DNA of 64,000 nt from Labia minor (taxonomy: Eukaryota > Arthropoda > Insecta > Dermaptera > Spongiphoridae): contig OY720344.1 in NCBI GenBank assembly GCA_963082975.1, positions 80,898,053 to 80,962,052 on the forward strand. Reading direction: 5' to 3'. Below the pieces are notes generated by a model, which did not search any database, was not told where the DNA came from, and saw only the letters and a list, made by a program, of their open reading frames with translations. The translations under genes were made by a program, and so were the position numbers. Positions 1,472 through 56,863 of the stretch are shown in pieces. Position 1 is the stretch's first letter. Each line of letters starts with the position of its first letter.

Positions 1472-2060
1472 CTAGCTGCCTAGAGCGCCTTCGGCGCTCT
1501 TCACACCTAGACGCGGGCTCCGCCCCCTGTACCCCCGAGAGGTACATAGTATTTGGTTGAAAGTAGTAAAAGGTTTTCATCCATTTTGTTTCAATCAGTA
1601 TATTACATAAAGCATTCATTTCTTTATGTGTTCTTATTTAAAATATATTTTAATTTAATCAGTAAATTAATTATATAAATTATAATTGTATATGTTATAT
1701 CTATCTATCTATGTGGCTCAAAGATACTCGAAAGTTCTTGGCCGCAGCAACCACATTTCTCCAAGTGTCCCGATCTTGAGCCCTTGTCCCATCTCTCTTA
1801 CGTCCCTTCCTACGAGTCCTTGGTTTTCCAATCGGTCTCCCCACCTATATCTTTTTCCTCTCCCATTCAAGCCACGTGCCCTGCCTATCGCAGCTTTTTC
1901 CCTTTTATAACCCTAACTATTTCTGAAGATGCAGAGAGGCCATGCAATTTCTTGTTATGCTCTCTCCCCCATTCCTCAGTGACCTCATCTTTAAATCTTA
2001 TGATCGGATTGATAGAATCACACACCTCATTCAATACAAAAGGGGGTGGATGATCTTTTT
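1472..2060 (-). mobile_element. Helitron 3' part carrying a LINE fragment (copy A)
   Basis: Read on the minus strand, this piece ends with a stem-loop (arms AGAGCGCC / GGCGCTCT, 1482..1500), a short spacer and CTAG (1472..1475), followed by T. That is the layout of a canonical Helitron 3' terminus. A second hairpin-like GC block (around 1512..1532) lies just inside it. Further in, about 200 bp of AT-rich DNA leads to an ATAG microsatellite and then a reverse-transcriptase LINE fragment. The same order recurs at 5266, 15203 and 56863. The 5' part is missing or unrecognisable. Confidence 0.6.
1712..2060 (-). pseudogene. RTE-like LINE reverse transcriptase C-terminus, fragment
   Basis: In broken frames the minus strand matches the C-terminal end of an RTE-like non-LTR retrotransposon ORF. 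It contains counterparts of the KRPLGKPRTR-like basic stretch and the VAAAKNFR-like tail seen in the other copies. The ORF end runs straight into an (ATAG)n tail, as RTE-type elements often do. It has no catalytic domain and is not a functional gene. Confidence 0.55.
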
Positions 2061-3593: not shown

Positions 3594-5491
3594 TATATAA
3601 ATTTATTTTAAAATTTTTGCATGCTTATTAAAAATTTTTATGGAAATATTAGATGCAAAATTAATACGATTAATAATTAATAATAGAGTATACTATTTAA
3701 ATATTTCAAGTTTAAATTGGGTGGCTTGTATTGCTGGTTGCCTAAATGCCAGGGGCTCCTAGACGAGTGAACGCTCACTCAGTCAGTCAGTCGATTTCGT
3801 TGTGTGAGTGCGCATGCCAACTCAAACCAGACGGGCGGCGATGACGCTCTTTCTCTCTCTACTAGATCAAAAGCGTAAGTGTATTTTCTTTTGAAATTAT
3901 CATAATTCACCAATATAATGCGATCAATTAACATCACCTCTACCATCATTGTAATAAAGTCTCAAATGATTTAGTGATTTTTTTTAATAATTATTTTAAT
4001 AGAAAAATATCATATTTGTTTTTTATTTCATATTCATATTATGAATGATATTTTATTTATTAATATATATATTTAGCGTGATATATCTGCACATTACTCA
4101 AAATTTAATTTAAAATTATTTACACATTTTATTAGAATTTGAAAATTTATATATCATCTCTTTTCTTCTAATTAATCTCTTTTCTATTTCATTTTTCTCA
4201 TGTCATTTAATATAATAGGATATATATATTTCTATTTATTATTATTATTCTATTTTTTAATATTTTCTATTCAATATGAGTTGATTTTTTTAATATATAT
4301 TTGGATATTATTATTCATTTATAAGTAAATATAATTTTTTTATTTTCAATTTGAAGTGACATTTATTCTAGAGACGCCCAAACGGCAGGGCTAATTTATT
4401 TTCTTTTTTTCTTTTATCTTGTAATTTACTGTTTAATTCATCTAAAAAAATGATAAATTCTGATAAATATTTATTCTTTCAATATCAATTATTTTCTGAG
4501 AATTCTACATGATTATCAAAATCAAAAATCAATTGAAATTTAAATAGAAATCATTTTAACATTCTTTTTTAATTATAGATAATAGAAAAGGTCAGGTTTT
4601 TAATACTTTCATTTATTAAACAAGAATTTTATTATGTTTCTTTGAAATATATCTAAATATTATTATTTCATTAAAAGTTATAATAACGAAAAATTAATAT
4701 GTGATACATTGATTAACAACAGTTTCAAAGTATTTTTAATCTGCATTAAAAAAAATACAACTGATTATAAAGGCAGATATTTTATTAGAATGAATTACTT
4801 ATAAATTTGGAAATAATTTTAAAGCTCGGAAGCTTCTTTTAGCTAAACAGCCTAGGCGTTACGTTATATATATTATATATTACTCGTATTTTATATTCTA
4901 TTGTATATATCTCGAGACAACTCCCAATATATTTACTTGTTTTTCTTATTTTGATTTCAAGCAAGAGCTATTGAACTAATATATATATTTTCATGTTATC
5001 TTTTTTATAATTACGCCCAAAAAAACATCTGATCAGTTAATTTATAAAATATTTCAGTTAAATAGAATTTCTATGCTAAATTTAAATTTGAATATAAGAA
5101 ATAGAAAAATTCGTAATTCTTAAATGTTATACCATTATGTATTGCTAAATATAAATTTATGTAATATTTTAAGTGTTTTATTTGTAATTTTTCAATTATC
5201 ACTTGTAAGTATATTGAATTTCTATTTATACACAGGCAATTATATATTATTTTTTTATTTAAATGCTAGCTGCTCAGAGCGCCTTCGGCGCTCTCCACAC
5301 CTAGACGGGGGCTCCGCCCCCTGTACCCCCCGAGTGGTACATAGTATTTGGTTAAGAGTAGTAAAAGGTTTTCATCCATTTTGTTTCAATCAGTATATTA
5401 CATAAAAAATTCATTTCTTTTTGTATTCTTATTTAAAATATATTTTAATTTAATCAGTAAATTAATTATATATATTATTATTCTATATGTT

Positions 5492-6210
5492 ATATCTATC
5501 TATCTATGTGGCTCAAAGATACTCGAAAGTTCTTGGCCGCAACAACCACATTTCACCAAGTGTCCCTATCCTGAGCCCTTGTCCCATCTGTCTTACGTCC
5601 CTTCCTACGCGTCCTTGGTTTTCCAAGCGGACGTTTTCCAATAGGTCTCCCCACCAATATCTTTTGCCTATCGCAGCTTTTTCCCTTTTATAACCCTAAC
5701 TATTTCTCAAGATGCAGAGAGGTCATGCAATTTCTCGTTATGCAGTCTCCGCCATTCCCCGGTGACCTCATCTTTCTTTGGCCAATAAATGCTGGGAAGA
5801 ATCCTATTCTCAAATACCCTGAATCTACTCTCATCTCCCAGGGTCTTAGACTATGCCTCCCTCCCATATAATACAACAGGCAAAATAATTGTTTTATATA
5901 TTTTAATTTTGATTCCTTTTGATAATACTTTTGATGAGATAAGCCTCTTTACTGCATGATAACAGGTGTTTCCCGATTGCTACATCGATTTAAATTCTTC
6001 TCAAATATTATTATTCTTCGTGATTACATTCTTTTTTTTACATATTCAAATTCTACATTTTATATATTAAGATTTTGTATGTTAATACTCTTCCTCTTTG
6101 TTACTAAATATTTTTTCTTATCACTATTAATTTCAAACCTCCATTAATTTTTTCTCGCTATCTGTAATTGCAATTGCCGAATCTCCTATTATATTTAAGT
6201 CGTATATTTG
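5492..6210 (-). pseudogene. RTE-like LINE RT/C-terminal fragment inside the Helitron
   Basis: The minus-strand reading begins near 6210 with IIGDSAIAITDSEKKLMEV, which resembles the segment just after the reverse-transcriptase ADD motif. It continues through KKKYLVTKRKSINIQNL, YHAVKRLIS, IKIKIYKTIIL, a degraded LYGCE-type motif, FRVFENRILPSIY, and a C-terminal tail with the AAKNFRV stretch, ending in (ATAG)n. Several frameshifts and stops are present. The N-terminal endonuclease and most of the RT are missing. It is the longest of the captured copies and gives the upstream limit of the LINE fragment. Confidence 0.7.
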
Positions 6211-6427
6211 AAATATTAGAATTTAAAATAAAAAGTAAAATATTATAATAATTCTTTGATTGGGAATCGCTATGATAATTCATTGTTTAAAATGCTTCCG
6301 CTAGGGATAGTGAGCCGCGAGATGCTCTTGAATGAACAACATGGAGAATTATATAAACTTTAAAAAATTAATTTCTGCGGTTATTGATTTGATATAAATT
6401 AAATTTGTAGCCTATGTTACTCTAAAG

Positions 6428-6895
6428 CAGTGGTTCTTAACCGGGGTGCCCGCACCCCTGGGGGTGCGGGAATGTATTTTTGGGGGTGCGGGAGAAGCCC
6501 CTACCTAACCATAAAAATTATTAAATATCATTTATTAAATTTCTTATAATAAAATATTTGAAATCTGCAATAATGTCCCCAATATTGAAGCTCATAAAAA
6601 TTGCTAGGAACCTAAAATGCAAGTGATGACTTACGAGTATGTCTTTCAAAAAAGGAACCTCGCTTCGCCAGTATAATAATGAACAAACAACAACAGACTA
6701 GTCATTAATAAAAATAATATTGTTTTGTATTTATATAAAATGTACAATGTTTTTCAATAAACAATAAACAATAAGTTTCGCAAAAAATGTATTTTTCTAG
6801 ACTAAAAAAATTAAAACACATTTTTCAATGGGGGTGCGGAGATATATTTTCAGATTCAATGGGGTGCGACTCGCTAGAAAGGTTAAGAAACACTG
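6428..6895. mobile_element. hAT MITE (GGGGTGCGGG family)
   Basis: Terminal inverted repeats are CAGTGGTTCTTAACC and GGTTAAGAAACACTG. The flanking 8-bp duplication is CTCTAAAG / CTCTAGAG (7 of 8 identical). GGGGTGCGGG blocks occur just inside both ends. It is non-coding and is inserted inside the Helitron at 5266..7103. Confidence 0.9.
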
Positions 6896-7139
6896 CTCTA
6901 GAGGTATATAAGAATATTGTGATGTAATTTCATAGAAATCGGTTCAGCCAATTCTGAGTCTATAAAATAGTAATTTTCCGGACAGACAGACATGAAAAAT
7001 TCTAAAGTCACTTGGACTCTAGAGGTAATGAAACACGAAGATATGCAAAAAATTTTAAATTCTGAGCAATGTGCAGACAAAAACCTTTTTTTATATATAT
7101 AGATATATATTTTATATATATAAATTAAATCTAACTCTA

Positions 7140-15202: not shown

Positions 15203-15735
15203 CTAGCTGCTCCGAGCGCCTTCGGCGCTCTCCACACCTAGACGGGCGCTCCGCCCAGTGTCCCTATTCTGAGCTATAACCATCTAACTCCTACCCTGTC
15301 CTATCTCTCTCACGTTCCTTCCTACATTGTCTACCCTGTTCACAATTGGTTTTCCAAACGGACGTTTTCCAATCGAACTCCCCACCAATATATTTTTCCT
15401 CTCCCATGTGCCCTGCCGATCCCAGCCTTCCCTATTTTATGACCTATATCTAGAGATGCATAGAGGTCATGCAATTCCTTGTTATGCAGTCTCCGCCATT
15501 CCCCGGTGTCCTCATCTTTCTTTGGCCCATAAATGCTGGGAAGAATCCTATTCTCCAATACTCTGAATCTACTCTCATCTCTCAGGGTTATAGACCATGC
15601 CTCCCACCCATATAATACAATTAATAATTTAATAATTTTGATCCCCTTTGATAATAATTTCCCGATTGCAACCTCGATTTAAATTCTTTGCAAATATTAT
15701 TCTCTCTGATTCTAATTATTTTGTCTTATCAAATT
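15203..15735 (-). mobile_element. Helitron 3' part with LINE fragment (copy C, deleted)
   Basis: On the minus strand it ends with the GAGCGCC/GGCGCTC hairpin and CTAG (15203..15206) followed by T. Just inside the GC-rich block (about 15255) it jumps directly into LINE coding sequence, so the ~230-bp joint and the LINE tail present in copies A, B and D have been deleted. The 5' end is not seen. Confidence 0.6.
15256..15735 (-). pseudogene. RTE-like LINE C-terminal fragment
   Basis: The open minus frame contains MENRILPSIYGPKKDEDTGE, WRRLHNKELHDLYASLDIGH and AGIGRAHGRGKIYWWGVRLE. This is the best preserved of the captured LINE tails and is typical of RTE-like elements with a GPK.DE.TGEWRRLHN motif. 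Upstream on the minus strand a deletion removes the YHAVKRLIS region found in copy B. No catalytic residues are present. Confidence 0.7.
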
Positions 15736-16061
15736 AATTAATTTCAAACCCCATCACTTTTCCTGCCTCGATTAATTTTTTTATGCCTCTTTAAATGTTT
15801 TTAATTTATTTAAAAAAAAATAAAGTAAACAAAATAAAAATAAAATATAAAGAAATTAGAAAAACACTAAACTACTATAAAAATAATATTAAAAAATATA
15901 TATTAAAATCTTACGTGAAAATCCAATTATGAGATCAAATTTTCTTAATTAAAATGATTTACTCACATAATCTTAAAGATTAATAGTATTAAATTATAGC
16001 CGTAATGTGAATGTTTTCAAAGTTTAAAAGGCCAATAAGATCAATTGAGATATTGTAAATA
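15736..16061. other. AT-rich spacer
   Basis: A-rich and T-rich runs only; no feature recognised. Confidence 0.5.
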
Positions 16062-16310
16062 TCAATATATATATAAACAGATTTTTATCTGCACATTGCT
16101 CAGAATTTAAATTTTTTTGCGTATATTCGCATTTCATGTCCTCTAGAATCCAAAAGTGACTTTAGAATTTTTCATTTCTGTTCATAGACTATAAATTTTA
16201 TTAATATCTAATCAATAACAATAATCAGAAATTAATTTTTAAAAATTTGATATAAACATGTTGTCATTTAGCAGCGCAAAGAATACAATAAAAAAGATGT
16301 TTTTAATATT
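16062..16310 (+). mobile_element. Helitron 5' end (same family as 5266..7103)
   Basis: It starts TCAATATATATATAAACAG after an A. It continues with GCACATTGCTCAGAATTT and AAAAGTGACTTTAGAATTTT, the 5' part of the Helitron at 7103 on the other strand. Homology fades by about 16250. No matching 3' end was found, so the copy is truncated or interrupted. Confidence 0.55.
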
Positions 16311-16510
16311 TATATTTTTATTTTATTTTTCTAATATTTACAATATTTCAATTAATCATATAGTTTTTTATATATGTTTATTTATGCACAAAAAATTAAT
16401 TGACATAATTATTAATTTAATAATAAAATTAATTTAATAAAATATTAAAATAATAATAATAAAAATTAATAAATTTGTAAAAAAAATATATAATACTTAA
16501 AGAAAAAAAT

Positions 16511-31473: not shown

Positions 31474-31808
31474 CTAGTTGAGCCACGAGAGGCTCTGAAT
31501 GAATAATATGGAGTATTATATAAATTAATTAATTTTTGCGGTTATTGAATATATATTGATATAATATATATAGCTTATGTTCAAATAGATAAGAATATTG
31601 TGATGTAATTTCATAGTAATCGGTTCATCCAATTTTGAGTCTATAACGTTATTATTTTTCGGACAGACAGACAGACAAACATATTCATATTCTAAAAAAT
31701 TTTAAAGTCACTTTTGGATTATTGAGGTCATGAATCTTAAAGATATGCAAAAGATTTGAAATTCTGAGCAATGGGTAGACAAAAACATTTTTATATATTT
31801 TATATAGA
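31474..31808 (-). mobile_element. Short Helitron derivative
   Basis: On the minus strand it starts TCTATATAAAATATATAAAA (31808). It carries the family's TTTTTGTCTACCCATTGCTC, a GTTTGTCTGTCTGTC tract and the TCGGTTCATCC-type core. It ends GAGCC-TCTCGT-GGCTC-AA-CTAG at 31474 followed by T. It stops at the position of the internal hairpin of the longer copy (6301), so it lacks the LINE-bearing 3' half. Confidence 0.6.
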
Positions 31809-43009: not shown

Positions 43010-45608
43010 GGAGAGATGAAGGGAAAGGACAGCGAGCTAGCGACGATGGAGAAGTGGCTAGGGTCTGTACCTAAGTAAGTCCTGTGGCTGAAGTCTTTTA
43101 AGTCTTCTAGTTAGATGGTCTGTTGAGGTAAGTTGTCTTGCTGTTAGGTTTTGGTGAGAGGTAAGTCTTTTATGATAAATGATTTATAACTTCGATGATA
43201 AGAGGGATAATAAATTCTTCATAAAGAAGTTTTGATGGGATGTAACGGGGAGCCGCGGCGGCTATGGTCCTATGGACAGCGTTCTGGCATCTCTAAATTA
43301 TATTAATATTGGAAATTTTAGAGGCTCCCCACAATTGACATCCATAGGACCATATCGCCTTGATGATGGTATTGTAAATGAGGATTTTGTTGTCAAGTGA
43401 TAGGTGTGATTTCCGTCTAAGCAGCCAGGGAAGTCTAAGCGAGAGTTGTGTGTTTTTTGTCGTTATATGTTGTTTCCAGTTAAGTCTTCTGTCAAGGTGA
43501 ATCCATAAATATTTAGAAGATTCATTTTGGGGAATGATGGAGTATAGTCTTACAGGTGGACAAGTTTTTCTGTTAAGAGTGAATGTCACGTGGGTAGATT
43601 TGGTCTCATTTATAGCCCTTCTCCACCGGGCTAACCAGGGTCTAATTAGTTCTAAGTGACTTTGAAGAGCAGCGGAGGCCTTTGATGAATCTTCGTTACT
43701 GGCCAATATCACTTTGTCATCCACAATGGTGGCCAGAGTGGTGAGGTCAGTTGTGGGAAAATCTGCAGTGAATAAGAGATATAAGAGGGGCCCTAGTTCA
43801 CTGCCCTGAGGGATCCCTGCATACACACCAAGTGGCTCACAGATATGACCTTATGACACGATAGAGTGGGGCGGATAAGGGACTGTACAGCTTCACAAGG
43901 AGGCCCTGATGCCAAACTCTATCAAATGCTTGGGATACGTCCATAAAAGCCGCGGAACAATAACCACGGCCCTCCAGCGCGCATGAGATCACCCGTACCA
44001 CCCTATGGACCTGCTCAACTGTTCCATGCCCAGCTCTGAACCCAAACTGGTGGGCAGGAATGACATTACCGTCAACCAGGCCAGACAGGATTCTGTCTCT
44101 GAGAATTATCTCAAAGAGTTTAGAGACAATAGAGAGGAGGCTGATTGGTCTATAAGATACAGCCTCCTCTGGTGGCTTGCCGGGTTTTGGAACCATAATT
44201 ATCTTGGCTATTTTCCAAGAGGAAGGAATTATCCTTTTTTATTTTTATGATTGCATTAAAGAAATTACTTAAAAAAAGAATTGCGCAATCGGGAGCCTCA
44301 CCCAGCATTTTGCCCGTAATCTTGTCAAGACCAGGGTTTTTTTTGATATATACAAATGGATTTTTGACCTCATTTCCGAGGGGATAACTTCTTTGAAGTT
44401 TTTTAAAGGAAAGTTAACACAGCGAGGACCTGAAAGTCATTAGGACAGACGGAATTGGAAGGATAAGGGATGAATACATTATCCAAATGTCCTGGGAACA
44501 AACAGACTTTTCCGAATCAGATCGGGCCTGATGAGAGTCTTAGGGGAGGAATATGTTTGGGATGAAGGTTTAATTTTTTGGTGAGTTTCCAGAGGGAGTA
44601 GTTGGTAGATTGGGCTGGAGTGAGGTATTTAAGGTAGTTTTGGATATTTTGATTTTTATTAAGGGAAAGAAGCTTTTTGGTTTATTTAGTTAAATTATTA
44701 ATTCTATTTTTAATAATAGGAGATCTGTTTTTCTGCCAAGTTTTCCTCAATTTGTTTTTATAGGGAATCAGACATTTTATATTGTGGGGAGTTGATGAGG
44801 AAGCAGCTTGTTGGAGGATTGTTGTTAGGTGATTCACCGCTTCATCGATATCTGAACCATTTTTAAGAGGGAGAGAAAGGGTTAGGTTGTTTGCAAAGAA
44901 GGACTGTTAGTAAGGGAGGGAGAGGGTGGTACTAATGGATTAATAGTTGTTATTGCAGGGGACAGGAGAATGGTAAGATGAAAGATCAAGCAGTTATTTG
45001 GGCTAAAAGGATCTATTTGACAGGCCTCAGACGACGAAAAAGTCAATCAGATCAGGGATTTTAGATCGATCTGTAGGCCAGTACATGGGTTTCCCAGTGG
45101 AAATAGGTCTTAGGTTGAATTTGGAGAATGAGTTCCAAAGACTTGCTTCTGGGATTGATAAGCCTAGAGCCCGAACAATAGTGTTTGAGGTTAAAATCAC
45201 CCCCACAATGAAAGAAGAGCCCAAAGTGCCAAAGAACTCCTCAAAAGAGCCAGAATCTATTTTGTGTTTGGGAGGACAATATACTGCAGAAATGGTAAAA
45301 CAGCCCGTACGTTCAGTCAGGGTAACCGATGTGGCTTGGAGAAAGTCTTTTTGAAAAGAAGGATTAGCATGCTGATTTATTGATTCCTTGATAATTATAG
45401 CAGAGCCTCCATGTGAAGTGTCATCGGGGTGATTTGTGAGGTAAGAAGAGAATTTTGGAATTTTTATATAGTTTCTTGGATTAAAGTGCGTTTCAGAAAT
45501 TAGGAGTACATCAATATCTTTTGAGAAAAGAAAATACTTTACTTGCTCCAGATGTCTAATGAGCCCATTGGCGTTCCAGAGAGCAATTTTAAGGGTTTGA
45601 GCCATTGG
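43010..45608 (-). pseudogene. Jockey-like ORF2: endonuclease and reverse transcriptase
   Basis: The ORF starts MAQTLKIALWNANGLIRHLE at 45605. Endonuclease motifs follow: LLISETHF (catalytic Glu), HGGSAIII, AVYCPPKHK, a damaged SFIVGVIL where GGDFN is expected, and SKIPDLIDFFV. A frameshifted linker (about 45020..44370) leads to RT motifs: YRPISLLSIVSKLFE, HQFGFRAGHGTVEQVHRV, AAFMDVSQAFDRVWH (first catalytic Asp), GIPQGSELGPLLY and ATIVDDKVILAS. The last replaces the usual YADD/FADD, so the residue before the Asp pair is changed. NWKQHI and SYGCQLWGASKISNI follow, with decayed C-terminal text to about 43010. At least four frame breaks were seen. Confidence 0.9.
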
Positions 45609-45639
45609 GTAGCCTAGTAACGAGAATAGTCAGTAGGTT

Positions 45640-54112: not shown

Positions 54113-54171
54113 TTAATATATAATTATATAATGTATATAATAACAATATATATAATAACAAATAGAAAATA

Positions 54172-54825
54172 AATAAGTTGACCTGTGGCCAGGTCCGAAC
54201 CGACCGACGGTTTGAAGTAAATTAATTTCCAGCTACAGAAACAATTTCAAATAATTTTAATATATCTATTAATGTAATAAAAAACATATAGGCATATAAC
54301 ATAAATATTTTTAATTTTATTTTATTTATAATATATGTATATATTTATATGTAAGACCAGGCTGTGACGTCATGATTGGCTGGATGACGTCATATAATTT
54401 TAAATCAAGAAAAAACTAATAAATATGATTTTCCCGAGGATAAAACCAATACAAAGTGCATGATTCGTGGTGATATATACAAAAATCTCCTTTGGTGTGA
54501 AAATAACCCTTTCCTTCCTATCGTCGATCGCTAATACTACCACTTCCGGTTCACGGATTTGCACCAAAAGTTGATCAATTCATCCCACTGATGCATTAAG
54601 TAAATATACTAAATTTCATCAAAATCGGTTGAGCCGTTCAGGCTGTACACATCTATACGGACGGACAGACGGACGGACAGACGGACGGACAGACGGACGG
54701 ACAGACATCATGCTAAAAATACTTTTTTCTGTTTAGAAAATGCATGATTCGTGGAGATATGTAAAAATCTCCACATGTGAAATTTGGTGTGAAAACAATA
54801 CCTCCCTTACTATCGTCGGTCGGTA
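54172..54825 (-). mobile_element. Helentron-associated family A (copy A5, complete)
   Basis: Both ends are intact: AATAAGTTG with the ACCTGTGGCCAGGT hairpin at 54172..54195, and ATCGTCGGTCGGTA at 54812..54825. The GGAC tract at 54657..54710 is the longest in the family. TGACGTCA occurs at 54365 and 54385. The stem-loop GTGGAGATATG...ATCTCCAC lies near the CGGTCGGTA end. Confidence 0.8.
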
Positions 54826-55408: not shown

Positions 55409-56137
55409 TGTTATATATCAATTTTTGTAACTCACTCATTTAAATGACAAATCTGCTTATATAAATTAAGTTTATATATCTATCTATTTAAATAATAATA
55501 AAATAAAAAGAAAATGAAAAAATACAATTTTGTTATATGTATTCTTTTATCTATATATATAAAGGAGAGTGTTTGTATGTATGTATGTATGTATATATGT
55601 ATGTAATTTGTTTACTTTTTTGCTGTCATAGAAACAAACAAAAAAGAAATTTCCTACTTAACCGACACTTTACCGGTAATTTAGAATTATAAACATCAAA
55701 AAATAAGAAACGATTTCTATGAAATTACATCACAATATTCTTATATACCTCTATGGTAACATAGGCTCTATAGATTTTATTAATATCTAATCAATAACCG
55801 CAGAATTTAATTTTTTAAAGTTTATATATTCTCCGTGTTGTTCATTCATGGCCCACTGACTGGCGGACTCATCAATGTATATAACTCTTAAGTATTTCCA
55901 ATCAAAGAATTATTATAATATTTAACTTTTTATTTTAAATTCTAATATTAAAATATCATTTCAATTAAATAATTTATTCTAAAAGTTCTCATTTTAATTA
56001 ATTTAATAAAATATTTAAATCATATTTAACTTAAATTATTTGTATTTATTCTTTCCATATTTGAATAGTTACTTCTTTTATTTTAAGGGAGGGAATTAAC
56101 TATGATCTAAAAAAATTAATAAATGAACTTAATAATA

Positions 56138-56331
56138 AATAAGTTGACCTGTGGCCATGTCCGAACCGACCGACGGTTTGAAGTAAATTAATTTCCAGCT
56201 ACAGAAACAATTTAAAATAATTTTAATATATCTATTAATGTAATAAAAAACAGATATGGATAGAACATAAATATTTTTAATTTTATTTTATTTATAATAT
56301 ATATGTAATCACAGTCTGGTCTTACATATAT
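56138..56331 (-). mobile_element. Helentron-associated family A fragment (copy A6)
   Basis: It starts with AATAAGTTGACCTGTGGCC and ACCGACCGACGG, and continues through TTTCCAGCTACAGAAAC to CACAGTCTGGTCTTAC. It then breaks off directly into the LINE fragment, so the left end, GTCY tract and CRE-like sites are missing. It interrupts the Helitron at 55550..56863. Confidence 0.75.
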
Positions 56332-56638
56332 AACGCCTGTTATCATGCAGTAAAGAGGCTTATCTCATCAAAATTATTATCAAAGGGAATGAAAATTAAA
56401 ATATATAAAACAATTATTTTGTCTGTTGTATTATATGAGTGTGAGACATGGTCTATGATCTTAGGAGATGAGAGTGGATTCAGAGTATTTGAGAATAGGA
56501 TTCTTTCCAGCATTTATGGGCCAAAGATGAGGACACCAGGGAATGACGTAAGAAAGATGGAACAGAGGCTCAGAATAAGGACACTTGGAGAAATGTGGTT
56601 GTAGCTGCCAAGAACTTTCGAGTAGATAGATATAACAT
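56331..56638 (+). pseudogene. RTE-like LINE C-terminal fragment
   Basis: The plus frame reads MKIKIYKTIILSVVLYECET, WSMILGDESGFRVFENRILS and SIYGPKMRTPGNDVRKMEQR. It then jumps to AKNFRV and an (ATAG)-type tail at 56618..56636. Compared with 15256..15735, the segment encoding the basic tail is mostly deleted. It lacks the RT catalytic core. It lies in the same relative position and orientation as in the Helitron at 5266..7103. Confidence 0.75.
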
Positions 56639-56863
56639 ATTCAATAAAAATATAGATAATTAATTTACTGACTAAATTAAAATATCTTTTAAATAATCAC
56701 ACAATAAGAAATGAATGTTTTATGTTATACATTGATTGAAACAAAATGGATGAAAACCTTTTACATACAGACTTTCAACCAAATACTATGTACCACTCGG
56801 GGGTACAGGGGGCGGAGCCCCCGTCTAGATGTGAAGAGCGACGAAGGAGCTCTGAGCAGCTAG

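What the first reader, a model, noticed from the sequence alone, without database searches (positions are those of the whole stretch)
5266..7103. Helitron family that has captured and propagated a LINE reverse-transcriptase fragment
Seen: copies at 7103-5266 (minus) and 55550-56863 (plus) share a 5' TCTATATATATAAA start after A, the same 5' third, the same RTE-like LINE fragment with its ATAG tail in the same place and orientation, and the same 3' hairpin plus CTAG. Two further 3' parts (1472.., 15203..) carry the same LINE-to-tail order. Known: canonical Helitrons start TC, end hairpin + CTRR, insert A|T and can carry captured sequence. Inference: the capture preceded amplification. The alternative is a LINE lineage that acquired the Helitron tail as its own 3' UTR; the shared TC start argues against that.
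Basis: partly seen in the sequence, partly recalled or inferred. Interest (0 to 1): 0.75.

Follow-up and report, generated by a model that had tools for sequence, protein, structure and literature searches.

The report
Helitron family carrying a LINE fragment

Summary
The observation mostly holds. Copies A (7103-5266) and B (55550-56863) belong to a canonical Helitron family in a 604-Mb genome: 9,779 3' hairpin-CTAG ends and 7,629 5' cores, 0 in reversed-pattern controls. In a sample, 36 of 42 ends of the matching 3' type have the 5' core upstream. T follows 30 of 30 3' ends; A precedes 20 of 23 recognisable starts. 27 of 30 3' ends carry LINE sequence in the same orientation. Three solo LINE copies end at a (GATA)n tail without Helitron sequence, so "LINE with a Helitron tail" fails.

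"Captured" needs changing. The fragment is 5'-truncated, keeps its tail, and sits between ~15-bp direct repeats, exact in 9 of 20 copies: the mark of LINE insertion into an ancestral Helitron. The LINE 3' junction has 4,596 matches, the 5' junction 2,777, the joined empty site none. Insertion therefore preceded amplification. A RepHel Helitron shares the 3' terminus and is the likely driver. Errors of detail: A and B differ over bases 15-155, A is followed by C, the 15203 copy lacks the tail. New member of a known kind.

The parts
5266..7103 (-). Helitron copy A, whole: TC start at 7103, CTAG end at 5266; deletion derivative of longer members, with a hAT-like insert
7090..7103 (-). 5' terminus TCTATATATATAAA, preceded by A
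6899..7103 (-). type-I 5' region of copy A (its core TTTGTCTGCACATTGCTCAGAATTT has 7,629 genomic matches at up to 3 mismatches)
6428..6895 (.). hAT-like MITE inside copy A (ends CAGTGTTTCTTAACC / GGTTAAGAACCACTG; flanks CTCTAGAG / CTTTAGAG); not part of the family. The hAT label is by recall of end and duplication type
   Evidence: by eye
5494..6203 (-). LINE-derived segment of copy A, from the YADD region to the GATA tail; the LINE 5' junction is deleted in this copy
5479..5493 (-). 3' copy of the LINE target-site duplication (ATAACATATAGAATA here)
5266..5335 (-). Helitron 3' end: GC-rich inverted repeats, hairpin GAGCGCC-GAA-GGCGCTC, CTAG
55550..56863 (+). Helitron copy B, whole, with type-II 5' region (first ~157 bp unlike A beyond the first 14)
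56332..56631 (+). LINE-derived segment of copy B, with tail
56632..56646 (+). 3' copy of the LINE target-site duplication in B (ATAACATATTCAATA)
1472..1992 (-). 3' part of a third copy: LINE segment, tail, duplication at 1698-1684, hairpin, CTAG followed by T
15203..15761 (-). 3' part of a fourth copy, GGA type: LINE segment joined directly to the hairpin region, no tail
31479..31808 (-). 5' part of a family member
16062..16355 (+). 5' part of a family member

Best explanation
A and B are non-autonomous canonical Helitrons. They move by rolling-circle transposition, using RepHel protein from an autonomous Helitron in the same genome that ends in the same 3' terminus (sharing of the terminus shown, use of the protein inferred). 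Before the family multiplied, a truncated LINE landed inside one member by target-primed reverse transcription. It left its (GATA)n tail and a ~15-bp target-site duplication (structure shown, process inferred). Later Helitron copying carried this insert along, and it decayed by internal deletion and stop codons. The LINE piece is cargo (inferred).
For: Helitron identity: 9,779 3' ends and 7,629 5' cores with 0 control hits. Of the first 100 exact 3' hits, 36 of 42 TGA-type ends have an exact 5' core within 10 kb upstream on the same strand, against 2 of 40 GGA and 1 of 15 GGG. T after CTAG in 30 of 30; A before TC in 20 of 23 recognisable starts out of 30 loci. LINE in the founder: 27 of 30 3' loci and 11 of 11 elements assembled from overlapping or neighbouring loci carry LINE sequence in the same orientation; the 11 use 3' loci of the same 30. 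Matches at up to 3 mismatches: LINE 3' junction 4,596, 5' junction 2,777, joined empty site 0. A 254-nt joined-flank query had 40 of 469 candidates scored, and all 40 stop at 134-140, the LINE 5' junction. LINE entry: solo copy L094 has reverse transcriptase (RVT_1, 4.4e-25) and ends in (GATA)n followed by unrelated DNA. Homology starts at L094 ~775-781; upstream similarity is within shuffles in 4 of 5 copies, p 0.037 in the fifth. Repeat TATAACATATACAATA on both sides in copy L015: 16 nt, p 2e-4 (shuffles), 6e-4 (random pairs). Driver: two RepHel copies (L090, L093) are 99.6% identical through the hairpin end and their flanks differ beyond it; their last 148 bp are 93-97% identical to the 11 elements' 3' ends.
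Against: The duplication is AT-rich. Its 5' copy is exact in 9 of 20 distinct copies; 9 read AGAAAATA and 2 ATTCAATA in place of ATACAATA (copies seen twice counted once). The significance test used one copy with the exact repeat, so it is a best case. Solo LINE copies show weak or no clear duplications: exact matches of 12 nt (L062), 9 nt (window), 8 nt (L094), 6 nt (L038). A genomic block already holding a LINE, captured whole, would look the same. No clean A|T empty site was recovered for a whole Helitron copy. Some family members lack the LINE: 3 of 30 3' loci and a mini form with 144 junction matches, in which the site itself is missing, so they do not tell before from after. The 5' end of the RepHel element was not reached.
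Confidence: 0.75

Rival explanations
1. Helitron capture: the Helitron machinery picked up a stretch of chromosome that already contained a truncated LINE with its duplication, and then amplified.
For: Helitrons can take up flanking DNA (PMC4778049, passages). The LINE-flanking stretches are not in the part of the autonomous element that matches the family, so they could themselves be captured DNA.
Against: It needs two events where one suffices. No donor or empty locus at up to 3 mismatches and none among 40 scored of 469 candidates, though an old donor could have decayed beyond both tests.
Confidence: 0.2
2. A LINE lineage acquired the Helitron tail as its own 3' UTR.
For: LINE and tail are in constant order in 27 of 30 3' loci.
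Against: 36 of 42 TGA-type ends have the Helitron 5' core upstream. Solo LINE copies L094, L062 and L038 end in GATA repeats followed by unrelated DNA. A RepHel element without LINE between 5' core and end shares the tail.
Confidence: 0.02
3. Two or more independent LINE insertions in different Helitron subfamilies.
For: LINE parts differ in which internal pieces survive: most TGA copies lack L094 ~1073-1209, the L010/L036/L037 group keeps ~1150-1242.
Against: TGA copies, GGG copies (L012, L018, L030, L032) and GGA copies (L033, L037) share the LINE 3' junction and the bases that follow it, with small changes.
Confidence: 0.03

Closest known systems
Canonical Helitrons (5' TC, 3' hairpin + CTRR, A|T target, no duplication; features as stated in a passage of PMC4067079)
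   Same: Terminal features and flanking A and T; a RepHel element with the same 3' end in the genome
   Different: Carries one LINE fragment shared across subfamilies
Helibat / Helraiser (PMC4778049, passages)
   Same: 3' hairpin as end signal; cargo amplified with the element; 3' ends can be bypassed
   Different: Cargo in the passages is host gene and promoter DNA; here it is a LINE with signs of its own insertion
Helentrons with a CR1-type endonuclease (PMC4067079, passages)
   Same: A non-LTR retrotransposon part in a rolling-circle element; the paper names retrotransposition into a Helitron as one of two possible origins
   Different: There it is a fused, coding endonuclease; here a broken reverse transcriptase part in a non-autonomous element
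Silkworm Helitrons (PMC3789558, passages)
   Same: Copies with like ends and unlike interiors, put down to capture or insertion of other elements; fusion of two Helitrons
   Different: No LINE cargo with target-site duplication in the passages seen

Membership tests
Canonical Helitron | 5' end begins TC | tested here: met
   23 of 30 fetched 5' loci begin TCTATATATATAAA at the expected place; 7 are shifted or degenerate and were left out of the base count
Canonical Helitron | 3' hairpin shortly before CTRR | tested here: met
   hairpin + CTAG; 9,779 matches, control 0; fold z -4.69 for copy A
Canonical Helitron | insertion between A and T | tested here: met
   A in 20 of 23, T in 30 of 30; copy A itself has C after CTAG
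Canonical Helitron | no target-site duplication, shown by empty sites | tested here: inconclusive
   no clean empty site among 13 flank pairs in the fetched DNA; one spanning hit (L041_L014 in L002, 89%) rests on 21 AT-rich bases beyond the junction and was set aside
Canonical Helitron | 5' and 3' ends occur as one unit | tested here: met
   36 of 42 TGA-type ends; distances 263 to 6,965 bp over all 39 paired ends, clustering near 2.3, 2.9 and 3.25 kb
Canonical Helitron | autonomous relative with Rep and PIF1-type helicase sharing an end | tested here: met
   Helitron_like_N 6.7e-58; PIF1 5.7e-5, score below its curated cut-off, locus cut inside the helicase; shared 148-bp 3' end; 5' end not reached
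LINE (non-LTR retrotransposon) insertion, for the internal segment | reverse transcriptase homology, tail at 3' end | tested here: met
   RVT_1 4.4e-25 in solo copy L094; GATA tail in solo and Helitron-borne copies
LINE (non-LTR retrotransposon) insertion, for the internal segment | 5' truncation | tested here: met
   start at L094 ~775-781; no similarity above shuffles upstream in 4 of 5 copies, p 0.037 in one
LINE (non-LTR retrotransposon) insertion, for the internal segment | target-site duplication | tested here: met
   15-16-nt repeat, p 2e-4 and 6e-4 on one copy with the exact repeat; exact in 9 of 20 distinct copies; AT-rich
RTE clade, for the LINE | position in a reverse-transcriptase tree | not tested
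Helentron | endonuclease fused to RepHel, different ends and target | not tested
   ends here are canonical; of the RepHel C-terminal part only the last ~100 residues were seen (L090, stop at 304-306)

The most novel reading that the evidence does not exclude
A single LINE insertion marks the founder of this whole Helitron clan: no LINE-free form with the site intact was found, and the LINE-bearing lineage gave rise to at least three subfamilies with different ends. The insert may have helped its carrier, for example by supplying a promoter, spacing or read-through signal, rather than being neutral cargo.
Probability: 0.15. Interest if true: 0.6.

Novelty: new member of a known kind. Interest (0 to 1): 0.4.

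Why it matters
Helitrons are known for carrying foreign DNA, but how it gets in is mostly argued from models. Here the entry route is still readable in many copies: truncation, tail and target-site duplication of a LINE inside a Helitron. It is a possible worked example of one of the two origins that PMC4067079 offers for the LINE-type endonuclease of Helentrons (passage). It also warns annotators: a LINE count in this genome includes thousands of pieces moved by a Helitron, not by LINE activity.

Tried and rejected
LINE with Helitron tail: rejected. Extension of LINE homology upstream of the 5' junction: suspected by eye from translations, not borne out by alignment to solo copies and shuffles in 4 of 5 copies; of six stretches fetched for this, two (L095, L100) held the LINE region needed. 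Pfam on the LINE C-terminal part alone: one hit below cut-off, not meaningful. Rfam and tRNA scans of the window: nothing. Empty sites of whole Helitron copies in the fetched DNA: 13 flank pairs, only low-complexity, self or LINE-tail hits spanned the junction, apart from the L041_L014 hit in L002 that rests on 21 AT-rich bases. Relatives of the LINE in IMG/VR: none confirmed. A count of the LINE-to-hairpin fusion type (as at 15203) was asked three times and never answered.

Paper searches for retrotransposon or LINE cargo in Helitrons: no title or abstract start listed names such a family. Only open-licence PMC papers are covered. Of five papers I saw passages, of the rest listings only, so absence from print is not shown.

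Full report
The window lies at C1:80898053-80962052 of an unnamed 604-Mb genome in 71 contigs. It is 27% GC. The organism was not identified.

Observation. A (7103-5266, minus) and B (55550-56863, plus) begin TCTATATATATAAA after A and end in a GC-rich hairpin plus CTAG. They share LINE-like sequence with a GATA tail in the same place and orientation. The claim of a shared 5' third is too broad: positions 15-155 show no similarity. A is interrupted by a 468-bp hAT-like element (by eye) and lacks about 1.6 kb found in longer members. The 1472 copy has LINE, tail and end; the 15203 copy has LINE sequence fused to the hairpin region without the tail.

It is a Helitron family. The hairpin pattern has 9,779 matches at up to 2 mismatches and the 5' core 7,629 at up to 3, with none for the reversed patterns. 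The tool lists only the first 100 places of each, which were exact matches. I used all 100 listed 3' ends and the 57 listed 5' cores that lie in the same stretch of C1. The three bases after the hairpin split the 3' ends into types: 42 TGA, 40 GGA, 15 GGG, 2 GAA, 1 AGA. The 5' core lies upstream on the same strand within 10 kb for 36 of 42 TGA ends, 2 of 40 GGA and 1 of 15 GGG. Opposite-strand pairs within 10 kb number 5 and wrong-order pairs 3. Of 30 fetched 3' loci, 30 have T after CTAG. Of 30 fetched 5' loci, 23 have a recognisable start, preceded by A in 20 and T in 3; the flanks are 36% A and 38% T. Eleven 5'-3' pairs were assembled, five with gaps and one (L046_L024) without a TC start; all 11 contain LINE sequence before the 3' end.

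The LINE. In longer copies the LINE part reaches further upstream than in A, into the reverse transcriptase domain. A protein search had 50,614 first-look candidates in the genome, of which 150 were scored; the query also matches Helitron-borne copies, so this is no count of solo LINEs. One solo copy, L094, holds RVT_1 and ends in GATA repeats followed by unrelated sequence; L062 and L038 also end so. The Helitron-borne piece corresponds to L094 ~775-2038 with ~1073-1209 missing in most TGA copies, and its frame is broken by stops. Eleven borne copies are 96.5% alike (55 pairs) and 83.5% like L094 with gaps left out; BLAST pieces give 69-77% outside short stretches. Three solo copies are 92-96% alike over ~170 bp. 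So the borne version seems to have long evolved apart from these solo LINEs.

How it got in. Upstream of the 5' junction, similarity to the LINE is no better than shuffles in four of five copies (p 0.17-0.39) and marginal in one (p 0.037). On both sides of the piece stands ATAACATATACAATA. In copy L015 the longest exact match between the two 34-bp flanks is 16 nt; 5,000 dinucleotide shuffles give p 0.0002 and 20,000 random genomic pairs p 0.0006. The fuzzy scan found 25 5' junctions, 20 after removing copies seen twice; 9 of the 20 have the exact 5' repeat, 9 read AGAAAATA and 2 ATTCAATA in place of ATACAATA. Truncated 5' end, intact tail and duplication together are what target-primed reverse transcription leaves (established knowledge). 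Solo copies gave only weak support for duplications of this length.

When it got in. At up to 3 mismatches the LINE 3' junction has 4,596 matches, the 5' junction 2,777 and the joined empty site none. A longer joined query had 40 of 469 candidates scored, and all 40 end at the LINE junction. TGA, GGG and some GGA copies share the LINE 3' junction. Of 30 sampled 3' loci, 27 hold LINE sequence, one of them (L023) only 59 bp. The three that do not are L011, L017 and L020; L020 shows a short remnant by eye. The insertion therefore most likely came before amplification and before the subfamilies split. LINE-free mini forms (144 junction matches) lack the site and do not bear on this.

The driver. 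The genome has 104 Rep-domain matches, some in long open frames. One family (C5:34916909, C4:72535034; open frames 2,039 and 1,722 aa) carries Rep and the start of a helicase. Downstream of its stop, the two copies are 99.6% identical through the hairpin and CTAG. BLAST runs on for 19 AT-rich bases, but by eye the two flanks differ beyond CTAG-TAT. The last 148 bp match the 11 assembled elements at 93-97%. That 3' end is preceded by the family's own 5' core with no LINE between, i.e. a mini-element. L017 shows part of this protein's N-terminal region fused to a GGA-type hairpin end (E 5.7e-5). This RepHel family is the likely source of transposase; no 5' core was seen in the 1.1 kb fetched upstream of the first ATG.

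Comparison with print. Passages of PMC4778049 describe the 3' hairpin as a terminator that can be bypassed. PMC4067079 states the canonical features and offers retrotransposition into a Helitron as one of two origins for the Helentron endonuclease. PMC3789558 mentions insertion of other elements into Helitrons and Helitron fusions. The family is a new member of a known kind; its interest lies in the readable entry route and the founder status of the insert.

Noticed in passing
L090 791-1123 and L093 566-898: The RepHel Helitron ends in a complete LINE-free mini-Helitron (5' core plus 3' end). This suggests a read-through event in which the autonomous element took over the end of a mini-element downstream.
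   Followed up: partly
window 55550-55706; L010, L036, L037: A second 5' end type (GGAGAGTGTTTGTATGTATG...) on the same 3' end family: 5' ends seem to have been exchanged.
   Followed up: partly
window 6428-6895: hAT-like MITE in copy A with a near-perfect 8-bp duplication (7 of 8); label by recall.
   Followed up: no
copy A position ~863 (window ~6241); L093 after 898 (C4), C9:44560858, C10:66610500: Three antisense Helitron insertions at or near the same AT-rich site in the 5' region of other family members (C9 and C10 from coordinates only): a hot spot or a copied composite.
   Followed up: no
window 56109-56308, 47632-47428, 54168-54336, 36047-35848, 39239-39093: An unnamed ~200-bp repeat with copies 89-96% alike in the window, one inside copy B.
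   Followed up: no
window 7221-7142: Tail end of another LINE copy with GATA repeats directly upstream of copy A's start.
   Followed up: no
L075-L081, L083: A second RepHel family: eight loci with open frames of 1,537-1,655 aa, seven with the same domain score; probably recently active.
   Followed up: no
window 43293-45629: Reading frames that look like endonuclease and reverse transcriptase of a different LINE, in pieces; read by eye.
   Followed up: no
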